NCBI GenBank assembly: GCA_011051685.1
Contig: DRKQ01000155.1
Location: forward strand, 1 to 38,261
DNA: 38,261 bases
Origin: Gammaproteobacteria bacterium
GTDB taxonomy: Bacteria; Pseudomonadota; Gammaproteobacteria; SZUA-152
Direction of reading: 5' to 3'
The position numbers were made by a program, and so were the translations under genes. Every line of letters starts with the position of its first letter. The first letter of the stretch is position 1. The notes beneath the pieces were generated by a model. That model searched no databases and was not told the origin of the DNA. It saw nothing but the letters and a program-made list of their open reading frames with translations. Positions 1 to 26,970 of the stretch are shown here, in pieces.

Positions 1-46
1 ACGAGCCAAGGTCGAGGCCGAGTCGATAACGCATTGCGGGCAGCAT
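1..46 (-). CDS. 5' end of a leftward gene, Cas9-like RuvC-I N-terminus (partial)
   Basis: Fifteen codons are visible before the window edge: an ATG at 46 with an excellent Shine-Dalgarno (AAGGAGGGAC at 51-60, complement). The peptide reads MLPAMRYRLGLDLGS. A short basic lead followed by a hydrophobic strand ending in GLDLGS is the shape of the Cas9 RuvC-I motif, with the catalytic Asp in the LDLG context. FGGY/BadF-type sugar kinases and dehydratase activators also begin this way (LGIDLGTT), so the family cannot be fixed from 15 residues. The divergent terminator-ended RNA candidate at about 60-185 favours Cas9, because some type II loci carry tracrRNA divergent to cas9. Seen: start, RBS and 15 residues. 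Inferred: identity. Confidence 0.45.
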   Translation of the reverse strand, partial: MLPAMRYRLGLDLGS

Positions 47-59
47 ATTTGTCCCTCCT

Positions 60-185
60 TTGACAGATTTTCCCATAGCCTATATCATTTTCCCGCACAC
101 ATCATTGGGATATGTGCTCCAGCCGCTAACAAGCTGTTAGAGCACAAAATGCGAGGCCGCTATATGCGGCCTCTTTCGATTTTTC
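60..185 (+). ncRNA. candidate small structured RNA (possible tracrRNA)
   Basis: No plausible reading frame lies between the leftward start at 46 and tadA at 203, yet the rightward strand carries a stacked set of hairpins ending in an intrinsic terminator. GTGCTC (114-119) pairs with GAGCAC (140-145) and encloses TAACA-AGC-TGTTA (127-139); the terminator follows at 153-173. A terminator here, with no upstream rightward gene, implies a short transcript that starts in or near 46-110. Its position divergent to a Cas9-like start suggests tracrRNA. Neither the anti-repeat nor the promoter can be confirmed without the CRISPR repeat, which lies outside the window. It could instead be a leader of tadA. 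Confidence 0.35.
153..185 (+). terminator. intrinsic terminator upstream of tadA
   Basis: A perfect 8-bp stem (GAGGCCGC at 153-160 with GCGGCCTC at 166-173) closes a TATAT loop and is followed by TTTCGATTTTT. The T-rich tail is on the plus strand, so it ends rightward transcription that begins between 46 and 150. Confidence 0.7.
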
Positions 186-202
186 TGGATGTTTTCGAGT
201 GA

Positions 203-681
<479 letters not shown>

Positions 682-682
<1 letters not shown>

Positions 683-1689: not shown

Positions 1690-1781
1690 GGTTCCCAATA
1701 AGCCCAGAAGTGCGTATCCTATGCGATCTTTTGTGCGGCGCGTACAGTAATGCGTATTACGCCCAGTGAGAAAATGACCAC

Positions 1782-1895
1782 AAAGTTTGGAGAGCTGCCG
1801 GAGCTGATGCGCGCCATCCATGGCGCGCACCCTTCGGGCGCACTAAAGTGCGTCCCGTTTCGTTCCTGACGAAACGGTGGCCGAATGAGTAGATA
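1782..1895 (+). pseudogene. decayed tRNA-Ser 5' fragment interrupted by a palindromic insert
   Basis: Bases 1782-1806 match 1926-1950, the first 18 bases of the intact tRNA-Ser plus its upstream flank, with one mismatch in 25. After the D-arm start the match breaks. A string of hairpins follows: TGCGCGCCA (1808-1816) with TGGCGCGCA (1821-1829), and CCGTTTCGT with ACGAAACGG (about 1855-1877). The sequence then resumes with GGCCGAA near 1879, which corresponds to the D-arm of the intact gene. This reads as a tandem tRNA copy broken by a small palindromic repeat and then decayed. The anticodon and T arms are not recognisable. Confidence 0.5.
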
Positions 1896-2705: not shown

Positions 2706-4769
2706 ATGGAACCCCTTCGAGTTTTACTCATTGAAGATTCTGAAGACGATGCAGAGCTGACTCTGCGCCAGCTGAAAAAGGGTGGCTACGAACCCATTGC
2801 CAAACGGGTGGACACGCCCGAGTCCATGCGCGCGGCCCTGGAGATGCGTGAGTGGGACATTATTCTTTCCGACTACACTATGCCCGAGTTTAGTGGCCCC
2901 GCGGCCCTGGCGCTGTTGCATTCCACAGGGCTGGATGTGCCTTTCATCGTGATTTCCGGCGCCATGGGCGAGGAATCGGCGGTGGCCCTGATGCGCGCCG
3001 GGGCGCACGACTACATCATGAAGGACAACCTGGCGCGCCTGATTCCCGCCATTGAACGTGAATTGCGCGAGGCCGAGGTACGACGTGCCCGGCAGCGGGC
3101 GGAGGCGGATCTGGCCCTGGCGGCCAAGGTGTTCGAGTCCAGCGTGGAGGGCGTCCTGATCGCCGATCATGAGGCTCGCATCCTGCGCATCAACAAGGCC
3201 TTTACCGAGATTACCGGGTATACGGAGGCGGATGTCGTTGGCCAGCGGCCGAGTATTCTGCAATCGGGGCGGCATGACCGGGATTTCTATCGCGCCATGT
3301 GGCAGTCCATCAACGACAACGGCTATTGGCAGGGGGAGATCTGGAACCGGCGCAAAAACGGTGAAATATTTCCGGAATGGTTGACCATCAGCGAGGTGAC
3401 AGATGCCAGCGGCCAGCGTACCCATTTGATCGGTGGTTTCACCGATATGAGCCAGCAGAAGCAGGCGGAGGATCGCATCCATCACCTGATGTACTATGAT
3501 GCCCTTACCGACCTGCCCAATCGGGCCCTGTTTCGCGAGCGCTGCAAACGAGCCATGTCACGGGCATGGCGGAGCGGAAAGCGGGTGGCCTATCTGCATT
3601 TTGACATCGACCGCTTTGTCACAATTAACGATACCCTGGGCCACCAGGTGGGTGACCAGCTGCTACAGCAGGTGAGCCAGCGCTTGGCAGGCTCGGTGCG
3701 TCAGCAGGATCTGGTGGCGCGTTTCACCGGCGACGAGTTTGGAATAGCCATGGCGGATCTGGATCGCGATACCTCGGTGGAAGATTTGCTGCATACCGTA
3801 GTGAGTGCCTTCTCCGAACCCTTTCATGCCCAGGGCCGGGAAATCTTCCTCGCGCCCAGTATTGGCGTGGCCATTTTCCCCGATGACACCAGTGATTTTA
3901 GTGAACTGGCGCGGTTCGCAGACACGGCCCTGCACGTTGCCAAGCGGGATGGCGGCGCCAACTACCATTTTTATAAGCAATCCATGAACCGCCGGGCCGA
4001 TGACAGGCTGGACATGGAAAGCGCCCTGCGTCGCGCTCTGGAGCGAGAAGAGTTTCAATTGTATTACCAGCCTCAGTGGTCGTTGGCCACGGGTGAGATA
4101 ATCGGCGTTGAGGCCTTGTTGCGCTGGCAGCGCAGGGATGAAGACATGATGCTGCCGGGGAAATTCATCCCTTTGCTGGAAGAGACCAGCCTGATCATTC
4201 CCGTGGGTGAATGGATTCTGCGTCAGGCCTGTGCGGATCACAAAGCCTGGATGACGATGGGCTTCAAGCCTACGCCGGTGGCGGTGAATCTCTCGGCCCG
4301 GCAGTTTCGTGACAAGGGCTTGGTGTCCATGCTTCGCCGGGTACTGGAGGACACCGGCATTGACACGGAAATGATCGAACTGGAGATTACCGAGAGCTGT
4401 GTCATGGAAGACCCGGAGGAGGCCTTGAAGACTTTGCAGGCCTTCCATGATATGGGGGTGCGCATTGCCATCGATGATTTTGGCACGGGCTATTCCTCGC
4501 TGAGCTATCTCAAGCGCTTCCCCCTGGACGTGCTGAAGATTGACCAGACCTTTGTGGCTGATGTGCCGGCGGACAATGACGATGCCGCCATCATCGATAC
4601 CATCATTGCCATGGGGCATCGGCTCAAACTGTCGGTAATCGCCGAGGGCGTGGAGACCCAGGAACAGGCCGATTTCCTGCGTGAACATGGCTGCGACAAT
4701 GTGCAGGGTTATTTTTATGATCGTCCCATGCCCGGTGAAGAGCTGCTCTCCCGGTTCATCAAGGTCTGA
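2706..4769 (+). CDS. response regulator with PAS, GGDEF and EAL domains (degenerate GGDEF)
   Basis: Domains in order (687-aa numbering from ATG 2706): receiver about 4-125 with acidic pair and phospho-Asp56 in LSDYTMP; PAS about 140-260; GGDEF about 262-425; EAL about 440-687. The GGDEF signature reads TGDEF (341-345), and the preceding DRFVTIND has lost the usual lysine, so diguanylate cyclase activity is doubtful although an RxxD I-site (RQQD) remains. The EAL domain keeps EALLR, NLSARQF, ELEITES, DDFGTGYSS, LKID, EGVET and QGY, so it should hydrolyse c-di-GMP. An upstream GTG at 2664 is in frame, but conservation begins at 2706, with GGGAG a little upstream. It is the first gene of the signalling block and is paralogous to the gene at 8421. 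Confidence 0.92.
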   Translation: MEPLRVLLIEDSEDDAELTLRQLKKGGYEPIAKRVDTPESMRAALEMREWDIILSDYTMPEFSGPAALALLHSTGLDVPFIVISGAMGEESAVALMRAGAHDYIMKDNLARLIPAIERELREAEVRRARQRAEADLALAAKVFESSVEGVLIADHEARILRINKAFTEITGYTEADVVGQRPSILQSGRHDRDFYRAMWQSINDNGYWQGEIWNRRKNGEIFPEWLTISEVTDASGQRTHLIGGFTDMSQQKQAEDRIHHLMYYDALTDLPNRALFRERCKRAMSRAWRSGKRVAYLHFDIDRFVTINDTLGHQVGDQLLQQVSQRLAGSVRQQDLVARFTGDEFGIAMADLDRDTSVEDLLHTVVSAFSEPFHAQGREIFLAPSIGVAIFPDDTSDFSELARFADTALHVAKRDGGANYHFYKQSMNRRADDRLDMESALRRALEREEFQLYYQPQWSLATGEIIGVEALLRWQRRDEDMMLPGKFIPLLEETSLIIPVGEWILRQACADHKAWMTMGFKPTPVAVNLSARQFRDKGLVSMLRRVLEDTGIDTEMIELEITESCVMEDPEEALKTLQAFHDMGVRIAIDDFGTGYSSLSYLKRFPLDVLKIDQTFVADVPADNDDAAIIDTIIAMGHRLKLSVIAEGVETQEQADFLREHGCDNVQGYFYDRPMPGEELLSRFIKV

Positions 4770-4780
4770 GCCACTACACC

Positions 4781-6307
4781 ATGAACTGGGGACTCTACAC
4801 ACGGGTGATTGTCAGCCTCGGCGTGGTGCTGTGTGTGTCCATGGTGTTACTGGGCTACATTTTTTTACATGACCTTAAAGAAACTGAAAAGGTAAAGGAT
4901 GTCGCCCTGACCCTTGGGGGTATCTGGTTGCTGGTGATGCTTACCATCCACCTTGTCTTGCGCAGTACCCTCAAGCCACTCACTGCCCTTACCAAACATA
5001 TTACCGGCGCATCCTTGCAAACCTCACGACAGAAAATCAGCGTGACCTTGCGCGGCCGCAAAGATGAGGTTGGCGTGTTGGCCTGCGCTTTTGACGCCAT
5101 GCTCGCCAACCTGCAGAGATCCTATGCTGATCTGGAAAAACGTGAAGAGCATTACCGGCAGTTGGTGGAAACCGCCAATGTTATTCCTTGGGAGCTGGAT
5201 CTCAATTCTCGGCGCATAAGCTATGTGGGGCCGCAGGCCAAGGCTATTCTCGGATACGAAATAGAGGACTGGTACAAGGAGAAATTCTGGCTGAATCATG
5301 TGCATGCCGACGATTTGGAGACGGCAGAAAATTTCTATCGTTCAATTGCCTCCACCGGCGAGCGGGGCGATGTCGAATACCGTATTCAACACGCCAACGG
5401 CAAGTGGGTGTGGGTGCGTGATTACGTTCACAGGTCTACCAGTGATCCCCGCTCACCCACCCTGCAGGGCCTGACCTTTGATGTGGACGAGAGGGTGAAG
5501 GCCCGCGAGGAGTTGCAGCGTTACCGCGAGCATCTGGAAAACGTGGTGGATGAACGCACCGCGGAATTACTGGCGGTGAATCAGGAGTTGCAATCCTTTG
5601 CCCATTCTCTCTCGCAGGATTTGCGGGTTCCCCTGCGCATCATCAATGGTTTCAGCGAGGCCCTGCTGGAAGATTATGCGGACGCGTTGGATGAGGAAGG
5701 CCGCAGTTACCTGCAACGCATTTGTGGCGGCACCAAAAAAATGGGCCAGATGATCGAAGACATCCTGATTCTCTCCCGCGTGACGCGCCAGGAGCTGTAC
5801 CGCAAGAATCTTGATCTGGCCCCGTTGCTTGATTCTGTAGTAAAGCGTCTCGAGGAGGAGTATCCGGATCATCGAGTGACATTTGTCGCCGATCAGCAAA
5901 TGCGGGCCAACGGAGATCCGGAACTGCTGAAAACGCTGCTCCACAATTTATTGAGCAATGCTTGGAAGTTCACTCAAAACACCGCGCAGCCACAGGTCGA
6001 ATTCACAGCTCAGACCGATAATGGCGTTACCGTGTACAGCATAAAAGACAATGGCGCCGGGTTTGACATGCAGTACGTGGAGAAGCTGTTTCTACCTTTC
6101 AGGCGCCTGCATAACACGGAAGAATTTGAGGGTGCTGGTGTGGGATTGGCGGCGGCAAAACGGATTGTTCTGCGGCATGGGGGGCTTATTTGGGGCGAGG
6201 GTAAGGTGGGCGAGGGTGCGGTATTTCGTTTTACCCTCACTGCACCTACATCGACAGAGGAAGGCCGGGACGTGAGACAGTCTGCAGATACCGAACCCGC
6301 GGTTTGA
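4781..6307 (+). CDS. membrane histidine-kinase-like protein lacking the phosphoacceptor histidine
   Basis: Two membrane helices (about residues 8-29 and 43-61) are followed by a HAMP-like segment, a PAS/PAC domain (about 123-245), a coiled coil, a dimerisation/phosphoacceptor helix and an HATPase_c domain. The ATP site looks intact: LLSNAWKFTQ (N box), DNGAGFD (G1) and GAGVGLA (G2). The H box reads SLSQDLRVPLR, where relatives have SHDLRAPLR: position 279 is Gln (CAG at 5615-5617) instead of the phosphorylated His. His275, four residues earlier, sits where relatives have an aromatic residue. It may act as a pseudokinase or partner of the next kinase. It starts 12 bases after the upstream stop. 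Confidence 0.9.
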   Translation: MNWGLYTRVIVSLGVVLCVSMVLLGYIFLHDLKETEKVKDVALTLGGIWLLVMLTIHLVLRSTLKPLTALTKHITGASLQTSRQKISVTLRGRKDEVGVLACAFDAMLANLQRSYADLEKREEHYRQLVETANVIPWELDLNSRRISYVGPQAKAILGYEIEDWYKEKFWLNHVHADDLETAENFYRSIASTGERGDVEYRIQHANGKWVWVRDYVHRSTSDPRSPTLQGLTFDVDERVKAREELQRYREHLENVVDERTAELLAVNQELQSFAHSLSQDLRVPLRIINGFSEALLEDYADALDEEGRSYLQRICGGTKKMGQMIEDILILSRVTRQELYRKNLDLAPLLDSVVKRLEEEYPDHRVTFVADQQMRANGDPELLKTLLHNLLSNAWKFTQNTAQPQVEFTAQTDNGVTVYSIKDNGAGFDMQYVEKLFLPFRRLHNTEEFEGAGVGLAAAKRIVLRHGGLIWGEGKVGEGAVFRFTLTAPTSTEEGRDVRQSADTEPAV

Positions 6308-24978: not shown

Positions 24979-25239
24979 ATGAAAGCAATGAAAACCACCA
25001 ATATCGCCATGGCTGTAGCAGCCGCCAGCCTGTTTGCCTTTGCCCCCATGTCTGCTGTGCAGGCGGGCAGTGGCCACGATGCCAAGGTGCACTGTTATGG
25101 TGTCAATGCCTGCAAGGGTAAAAACGATTGCAAGTCAGCCAGCAATGCCTGCAAGGGCAAGAGCTCCTGCAAGGGCAAGGGCTTTGTGGCCATGAGCGAG
25201 GATGCCTGCGAGAAGATTGGCGGTAAGATCGGCGACTAA
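24979..25239 (+). CDS. bufferin-type precursor peptide (BufA2-like)
   Basis: An 86-residue peptide with a signal peptide (cleavage after VQA, about residue 29) and a lysine/glycine-rich core with six cysteines at 39, 45, 51, 58, 64 and 77 ([27 protein letters not shown]). Precursors of this type are modified on cysteines by a DUF692/MNIO enzyme and exported to bind copper in the periplasm. The CxxxxxCKG pattern with two short repeats resembles BufA2 more than the DUF2282 BufA1 form. AAGGAG (24964-24969) precedes the ATG. The bufB and bufC genes follow. From 24756 to 24978 I see only an imperfect GGGTGCA...TGCACACCC dyad (about 24836-24865) and no certain promoter. Confidence 0.88.
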
Positions 25240-25257
25240 TCTTGCTGATGTTCATGG

Positions 25258-25302
25258 AGGCCGGTGTGGCAGGGGCTTAACCTTGTGACACCGGCCTTTT
25301 TT
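25258..25302 (+). terminator. terminator/attenuator between bufA and bufB
   Basis: AGGCCGGTGT (25258-25267) pairs with ACACCGGCCT (25288-25297) and runs into T6 (25297-25302). Partial read-through would give much more precursor than enzyme mRNA, which is the usual stoichiometry for RiPP clusters. Confidence 0.85.
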
Positions 25303-25318
25303 GTGGAAGGATGCATCA

Positions 25319-26200
25319 ATGGATAGCGATTCAACTGTTGATCATGGCCAGCGGCCTTACCTGGGTTGCGGTTTGGGCCTGCGCCCCGAGTATTACGAGA
25401 CCATCGTCGAGACCCGTCCCGCGGTGGATTGGTTCGAGATCATCTCGGAAAACTACATGGTGGACGGCGGCAAGCCCCTGTATTTTCTCGACCGGGTGCG
25501 TGCAGACTATCCCATGGTCATGCACGGTGTGTCGCTGTCCATCGGCGGCACCGATCCACTGGACGAAGACTATCTGCAACGCCTCAAGCAACTGATCGAG
25601 CGCGTCGAGCCACAATGGGTCTCGGACCACATGTGCTGGACCGGCCAGGGCGGTCACAACCTGCATGACCTCATGCCCCTGCCTTTCAACCAGGAGGCCG
25701 TCGACCACGTGGTGGCGCGGGTGCAGCGGGTGCAGGACTATCTCGGCCGGCAGATTCTTCTGGAGAACGCCTCCAGTTATGTGAGCTTCAAGCAATCGGA
25801 AATGACCGAGTGGGAGTTTCACACGGAGATCATGCAGCGCGCCGACTGCCTGATGCTGTTCGATGTCAACAATATCTACGTCAGCGCGCGCAACCATGGT
25901 TTCGATCCCCTGGAATACATCCACGGTATTCCCCCCGAGCGCGTCTGGCAGTTTCATCTTGCCGGGCACAGCGATTACGGCGACTATGTCATCGACACCC
26001 ACGACCATCCCGTGGTGCAGCCGGTGTGGGAATTGTATGCCGAGGCGCTGCGGCACTTCGGCCCGGTGTCGGCGATGATAGAACGGGACGACCTTTTCCC
26101 ACCTTTCGAGGAATTGTTGGCCGAACTGGGCCAGATGCGCGCGATCACCCAGCGGGTGTTGGGCGATGAGACAAAGGAGGCGGCAACGTGCCCAGCCTGA
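25319..26200 (+). CDS. bufB: DUF692 multinuclear iron oxidative enzyme BufB
   Basis: A TIM-barrel enzyme of the DUF692/MNIO family, 293 residues from ATG 25319 (GGAAGG eight bases upstream). Iron-binding motifs are visible along the chain: MHGVSLS (His69), VSDHMCW, LLENASSY, FDVNNIYVS, HLAGH, DTHDH and IERDD. Enzymes of this family use two or three iron ions and oxygen to convert precursor cysteines into thiooxazole-type or related heterocycles. A TTG at 25301 would extend it by six residues, inside the terminator tail. It overlaps bufC by 13 bases. Confidence 0.93.
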   Translation: MDSDSTVDHGQRPYLGCGLGLRPEYYETIVETRPAVDWFEIISENYMVDGGKPLYFLDRVRADYPMVMHGVSLSIGGTDPLDEDYLQRLKQLIERVEPQWVSDHMCWTGQGGHNLHDLMPLPFNQEAVDHVVARVQRVQDYLGRQILLENASSYVSFKQSEMTEWEFHTEIMQRADCLMLFDVNNIYVSARNHGFDPLEYIHGIPPERVWQFHLAGHSDYGDYVIDTHDHPVVQPVWELYAEALRHFGPVSAMIERDDLFPPFEELLAELGQMRAITQRVLGDETKEAATCPA

Positions 26201-26970
26201 AGGAGCTGCAGACAGCCTTCAAACGCAATGTGGTGAAGGGCGACGAAGCCTTCGGTGAGTACATCATCAGCACCGAGGCCGTATCCAGCGATGTACGCCT
26301 GGACATTTATTCCAATGCCTATTTCGCCCGCCTGCAGGAGGCCCTGGAAAGCGACTACGAAATCCTCAAACAACTGCTGGGGGAAGACGTGTTCGAAGAG
26401 GCCTGCCTGGCCTACATCCACAAGTATCCCTCCCACTATTTCTCGTTGCGCTGGTTCGGTCAGGATTTCCCGGTATTTCTGGGCTATGCGCCGGACAGCG
26501 GTGAGCATCACTGGCCGGCGGAAATGGCACAACTGGAATGGTCTTTCGTGGGCGCCTTCGATGCGGCGGATGCCGAGCCCCTTGGCGAGGCCCATGCCGC
26601 GGCCATTCCTCCCGAGGCCTGGGCGTCACTGAAAATAGCCTTTCATCCCTCGGTGCGCACCATGACGGTCTGGTGGAACACCCTGTTGCGCTGGCGTACG
26701 GCGAAGCATAACGAGACCGTGCCGAAACCGGTCCGCCTGCCCCAGGCTACGCAATGTCTGTTATGGCGCAATGCACTGATCACCCAGTACCGATCCCTGG
26801 AGCCCGACGAGGCAGTGGCCTTGCAGGCGGCCCTGGAGGGAGCGGATTTCTCCGCACTGTGTGGCGCCCTGGCCGAAGAAATACAGGATCAGGAGCAGAT
26901 ACCCATGAAGGCCGCCGGCTTTTTGAAGACCTGGTTGGCGGCGGGGATGATTGTGGGGTTTGATTACTGA
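26188..26970 (+). CDS. bufC: DUF2063 partner protein BufC
   Basis: The 260-residue protein starts with the DUF2063 helical domain (SLKELQTAFKRNVV, IYSNAYFARLQEALESDYEILKQLLGEDVFEEACLAYIHKYPS) that binds the MNIO enzyme and delivers the precursor. The C-terminal half (about 150-260) is a winged-helix or RRE-like region (AALEGADFSALCGAL, AGFLKTWLAAGMI). GTG at 26188 has a near-perfect AAAGGAGG seven bases upstream, within the bufB end. It completes the three-gene cluster. No exporter or metal regulator is adjacent. Confidence 0.9.
   Translation: MPSLKELQTAFKRNVVKGDEAFGEYIISTEAVSSDVRLDIYSNAYFARLQEALESDYEILKQLLGEDVFEEACLAYIHKYPSHYFSLRWFGQDFPVFLGYAPDSGEHHWPAEMAQLEWSFVGAFDAADAEPLGEAHAAAIPPEAWASLKIAFHPSVRTMTVWWNTLLRWRTAKHNETVPKPVRLPQATQCLLWRNALITQYRSLEPDEAVALQAALEGADFSALCGALAEEIQDQEQIPMKAAGFLKTWLAAGMIVGFDY

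What the first reader, a model, noticed from the sequence alone, without database searches (positions are those of the whole stretch)
1..185. Possible edge of a type II CRISPR-Cas locus: Cas9-like start with divergent structured RNA
A leftward start with strong RBS encodes a GLDLGS strand like Cas9 RuvC-I. Divergent to it, a terminator-ended multi-hairpin RNA occupies the gap before tadA, matching the known tracrRNA placement in several type II systems.
Basis: partly seen in the sequence, partly recalled or inferred. Interest (0 to 1): 0.6.

Follow-up and report, generated by a model that had tools for sequence, protein, structure and literature searches.

The report
tracrRNA and truncated cas9 at contig edge

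Summary
The finding holds. The window is a whole contig (C155 of a 308-contig genome), so the leftward gene is cut after 15 codons (MLPAMRYRLGLDLGS; start 46, strand -). A degenerate DNA search for that N-terminus over 369 class genomes hit only four: this window and three cas9 loci, one of them broken. In the best match (G344, locus L121) cas9 starts MLPKMRYRLGLDIGS. It is followed by cas1, cas2 and a 36-nt repeat array, and is preceded by a divergent RNA 87% identical to window 95-184. In that locus and four others with an array in hand, the reverse complement of the array repeat matches the 5' end of this RNA, which is the definition of a tracrRNA anti-repeat. A covariance model built from seven such RNAs, window excluded, scores the window at 85 bits (E 5e-20). 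A near-perfect promoter (TTGACA-N17-TATCAT, 60-88) and a terminator (153-184) bound it. Hence: edge of a type II (by relatives, II-C) CRISPR-Cas9 locus with a complete tracrRNA gene. Not shown: the rest of cas9, cas1/cas2 and the array, none of which were found in this draft genome. This is a new member of a known kind. The locus replaces the usual guaA-tadA junction and may be island cargo.

The parts
2..46 (-). 5' end of a cas9 gene (15 codons, MLPAMRYRLGLDLGS, RuvC-I strand with the catalytic Asp), truncated by the contig edge
   Evidence: 12-13 of 15 residues identical to four intact Cas9 starts; the other genes with this N-terminal pattern in 369 genomes are two intact cas9 and one broken one
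53..60 (-). Shine-Dalgarno AAGGAGGG of cas9, abutting the -35 box of the opposite-strand promoter
   Evidence: sequence; L121 has GGGAGGG at the same place
60..88 (+). sigma-70 promoter of the tracrRNA: TTGACA (60-65), 17 nt, TATCAT (83-88)
   Evidence: 11 of 12 matches
95..184 (+). tracrRNA
   Evidence: 85.2 bits, E 5e-20, model built without the window; only strong match in the genome; 83-89% DNA identity to six relatives, 76% to the Limnohabitans plasmid copy
97..124 (+). anti-repeat; predicted core of the cognate CRISPR repeat is GAGCACATATCCCAATGATGT
   Evidence: duplex energies -35 to -45 kcal/mol with the array repeats of five close relatives, none of 300 shuffles as good; for the three repeats scanned along 38 kb, both strands, no site pairs better
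113..146 (+). stem TGTGCTC/GAGCACA enclosing the nexus-like hairpin GCTAACAAGC
153..184 (+). Rho-independent terminator GAGGCCGCTATATGCGGCCTC plus T-rich tail
   Evidence: outer pair covaries G-C/A-U
203..682 (+). tadA (tRNA adenosine deaminase), chromosomal neighbour, not part of the CRISPR locus

Best explanation
Window 1-185 is the tracrRNA end of a type II, most probably II-C, CRISPR-Cas9 locus whose cas9-cas1-cas2-array part lies beyond the contig edge. The tracrRNA is made from 60-88 rightwards and stops at 184. Its 5' part pairs with the repeats of the pre-crRNA so that RNase III can cut the duplex, and its 3' hairpins anchor the dual RNA in Cas9, which then cleaves matching invader DNA. 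Shown here: the homologous RNA gene, anti-repeat complementarity to relatives' repeats, promoter, terminator, and a Cas9-type N-terminus with its SD. Inferred: the rest of cas9, the array and activity.
For: N-terminal pattern hits in 369 class genomes are this window plus three cas9 loci, two intact and one broken. L121 has cas9, cas1, cas2 and nine repeats beside a divergent RNA 87% identical to 95-184. The same arrangement of cas9 and divergent RNA occurs in L147, L148, L149, L131, L150 and the annotated Limnohabitans plasmid locus NZ_AP027057. Repeat/anti-repeat complementarity was seen in every close relative whose array was in hand. Window-excluded covariance model: E 5e-20. Across 369 genomes every match above 38 bits other than the window lies beside cas9; one of these, G026, was not used to build the model. 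Promoter and terminator.
Against: Only 15 cas9 codons are visible, so the gene could be frameshifted further in, as in G082. No cas1, cas9 or matching repeat array was found in the rest of the genome, and no type II cas9 was found in 23 other genomes of the family. The genome is a fragmented draft, 93.65% complete, so absence is weak evidence.
Confidence: 0.96

Rival explanations
1. A decaying or orphan remnant: the tracrRNA and the start of cas9 remain, but cas9 is broken further in or the array is lost, so the locus is inactive.
For: No array or cas1 in the draft genome; a broken cas9 exists in G082.
Against: Promoter, anti-repeat, terminator, SD and start are all intact and conserved; missing contigs explain the absence equally well.
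Confidence: 0.12
2. The leftward gene is another ASKHA/RNase H-fold protein (FGGY or BadF kinase, PilM, RuvX), and the RNA is an unrelated sRNA or the tadA leader.
For: GLDLGS alone occurs in many such proteins (general knowledge).
Against: The neighbouring RNA is a tracrRNA by homology and complementarity; the N-terminus pattern found only cas9 loci elsewhere; the conserved start MLP(K/A)MRYRL and its distance to the RNA match cas9 loci.
Confidence: 0.01
3. Assembly chimera: a CRISPR fragment from another organism joined to the tadA contig of this one.
For: The guaA-tadA link of most genus members is absent here; the draft holds two guaA and two tadA copies, so it mixes strains or has duplications.
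Against: Junctions after guaA vary in several genus members, and guaA on C307 runs into an integrase, as real insertions would give. No read data to test.
Confidence: 0.05

Closest known systems
G344 contig C59 (locus L121) type II locus
   Same: divergent tracrRNA 87% identical, cas9 start 13/15 identical, same cas9-tracrRNA spacing; cas1, cas2 and nine-repeat array present
   Different: neighbouring genes; the window lacks the rest because the contig ends
Limnohabitans sp. TEGF004 plasmid pTEGF4 cas9-cas1-cas2 (NZ_AP027057.1)
   Same: annotated type II genes; divergent tracrRNA 76% identical; 18/18 nt repeat/anti-repeat match
   Different: plasmid-borne, betaproteobacterial; longer hairpin insert in its tracrRNA
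Neisseria meningitidis / Campylobacter jejuni type II-C systems (PMC3936727)
   Same: cas9-cas1-cas2 minimal gene set in the relatives; array read opposite to the cas operon
   Different: tracrRNA sequence differs; that paper reports that tracrRNA location and direction vary within type II-C
Streptococcus pyogenes type II-A tracrRNA
   Same: tracrRNA near cas9 on the other strand (own knowledge)
   Different: II-A has csn2; no csn2 in the relatives of the window system whose genes were read

Membership tests
tracrRNA (type II CRISPR) | anti-repeat complementary to the CRISPR repeat | tested here: met
   pairs with relatives' repeats at -35 to -45 kcal/mol, none of 300 shuffles as good; the organism's own repeat is not in hand
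tracrRNA (type II CRISPR) | own promoter and Rho-independent terminator, 3' hairpins | tested here: met
tracrRNA (type II CRISPR) | encoded beside cas9 | tested here: met
   15-codon Cas9-type start, same spacing as intact loci
Cas9 / type II effector | RuvC-I strand with catalytic Asp at the N-terminus | tested here: met
   MRYRLGLDLGS; homologous starts are Cas9
Cas9 / type II effector | arginine-rich helix, HNH, RuvC-II and RuvC-III | not testable with these tools
   contig ends after codon 15
type II-C CRISPR-Cas | cas1 and cas2 present, no csn2 or cas4 | tested here: inconclusive
   true of relatives L121 and L126; no type II cas1 in this draft genome
type II-C CRISPR-Cas | repeat array matching the anti-repeat | tested here: inconclusive
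   present in relatives; none found in the rest of this draft genome

The most novel reading that the evidence does not exclude
The CRISPR-Cas9 locus is cargo of an integrase-bearing genomic island at the 3' end of guaA, between guaA and tadA, in a genus whose other members searched here lack Cas9. Because the cas9 SD abuts the tracrRNA -35 box, expression of the two may be mutually coupled.
Probability: 0.3. Interest if true: 0.35.

Novelty: new member of a known kind. Interest (0 to 1): 0.22.

Why it matters
It shows that a tracrRNA gene and 15 codons are enough to recognise a Cas9 locus at a contig edge. It adds a natural tracrRNA to a branch of roughly 1,000-residue Cas9 proteins, with a predicted repeat that can be used to fetch the missing array from reads. 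Biologically it is an ordinary CRISPR-Cas9 immune system. Its site, in place of the guaA-tadA junction, hints at recent horizontal gain.

Tried and rejected
Pfam, NCBIfam and PDB searches with the 25-residue peptide gave nothing because it is too short. Rfam has no matching family at either threshold used. The first-reader refuter (FGGY/BadF kinase) was rejected once the divergent RNA proved to be a tracrRNA. The lone TIGR01865 match in the own genome (C170, 33 bits, 141-aa frame, HNH part only) is below the cut-off of 100 and is not a Cas9. An attempt to find an attachment-site duplication between the guaA 3' end and window 1-260 found nothing convincing. A scan of viral contigs for the RNA core found nothing.

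Full report
What is there. The window is the complete contig C155 of a 3.36-Mb, 308-contig draft genome, 93.65% complete. Anything left of base 1 is therefore cut off by the assembly. On the minus strand an ATG at 46-44, preceded by AAGGAGGG (complement of 53-60), opens a frame that runs off the edge: MLPAMRYRLGLDLGS. On the plus strand a promoter-like site TTGACA-N17-TATCAT lies at 60-88 (11 of 12 consensus bases), followed by a strong terminator at 153-173 with a T-rich tail. The segment between folds far better than shuffled copies (z -4.4). tadA follows at 203.

Test of the Cas9 reading. Profile searches with so short a peptide are empty. A degenerate DNA pattern for M-x-Y-R-L-G-h-D-h-G over 369 genomes of the class matched four places: this one and three others. 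All three others are cas9 loci: G344 and G235 have long intact frames, and G082 has a broken one. The G344 protein (P0001, 1021 aa) hits NCBIfam Cas9 TIGR01865 at 640 bits and Pfam HNH_4 and RuvC_III. Its start is MLPKMRYRLGLDIGS, 13 of 15 identical, with the SD at the same place.

Test of the tracrRNA reading. In G344 (L121), cas9, cas1 and cas2 run leftwards to an array of nine 36-nt repeats GTTCCGGTCACAGCGCATATCCCGATGATGTAGACT. Divergent from cas9 lies an RNA gene 87% identical to window 95-184. The same placement is seen in five more class genomes (L147, L148, L149, L131, L150) and in the annotated cas9-cas1-cas2 locus of Limnohabitans plasmid pTEGF4. Where the array was in hand, the reverse complement of the repeat matches the 5' end of the divergent RNA, e.g. 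25/25 nt in L147 and 18/18 in L126. The window RNA itself pairs with the repeats of five close relatives at -35 to -45 kcal/mol, never equalled in 300 shuffles. For three of those repeats (L121, L126, L147) the whole window was scanned on both strands, and no site paired better.

Held-out test. A covariance model built from the seven relatives, without the window, finds window 95-184 with 85.2 bits, E 5e-20. Over 369 class genomes every match above 38 bits other than the window lies beside cas9. Six of those genomes were in the training set; G026 was not. The remaining matches score 29-35 bits, and those outside cas9-bearing genomes were treated as background without inspection.

What is missing. 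No type II cas1, no Cas9 over cut-off and no array with the expected repeat (pattern hits equal the reversed-pattern control) were found elsewhere in the genome. Since the draft is incomplete and arrays assemble badly, this limits the claim but does not contradict it. No Cas9 over cut-off was seen in the other 23 genomes of the family either, which suggests the locus was gained horizontally.

Mechanism. By the established type II scheme (PMC3936727), the tracrRNA pairs with pre-crRNA repeats and the dual RNA guides Cas9; trimming of the duplex by RNase III is general knowledge. The relatives have the II-C minimal gene set, and the repeat strand that pairs with the tracrRNA runs opposite to the cas operon, as that paper describes for II-C arrays. 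For the window only the RNA gene and the Cas9 start are shown; the rest is inference from relatives.

Genomic setting. In most genus members searched tadA directly follows guaA, and further down the order tadA, GGDEF/EAL protein, histidine kinase is shared with the window. Here guaA is replaced by the CRISPR edge. One of two guaA copies of this genome (C307) is followed at its contig end by the arm-binding domain of a phage-type integrase. An insertion of a CRISPR-bearing island between guaA and tadA is therefore plausible but not shown. No attachment-site duplication was found.

Verdict. It is a new member of a known kind, of modest interest.

Noticed in passing
L159 (G000:C307) 4485-4815; L101; L104: The 3' end of guaA looks like an integration site in this genus: an Arm-DNA-bind_3 integrase starts just after guaA at the end of C307, and G006 and G009 carry other inserts after guaA.
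   Followed up: partly
G000 contigs C155/C294 (tadA) and C307/C190 (guaA): The draft genome holds two diverged copies each of tadA and guaA, suggesting strain mixing or duplication (reported contamination 4.06%).
   Followed up: no
window 1765-1806 and 1909-1950: A 42-nt near-repeat (86%) upstream of and overlapping the start of the tRNA-Ser(CGA) gene at 1933-2023, possibly a partial tRNA duplication.
   Followed up: no
window 25104-26970: Cys-rich CKGK-type repeats followed by an MbnB/TglH/ChrH (PF05114) protein and a DUF2063 protein: looks like a bufferin-type RiPP operon.
   Followed up: partly
L148 about 4763-4862 (G348:C25:27762-27861, -): A second, weak tracrRNA-model match (34.9 bits) at the end of the CRISPR array of G348, starting in a repeat and running outwards.
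   Followed up: no
L123 3814-8000 (G082:C8): A cas9 broken into several frames, with no array found in the 14 kb fetched.
   Followed up: no
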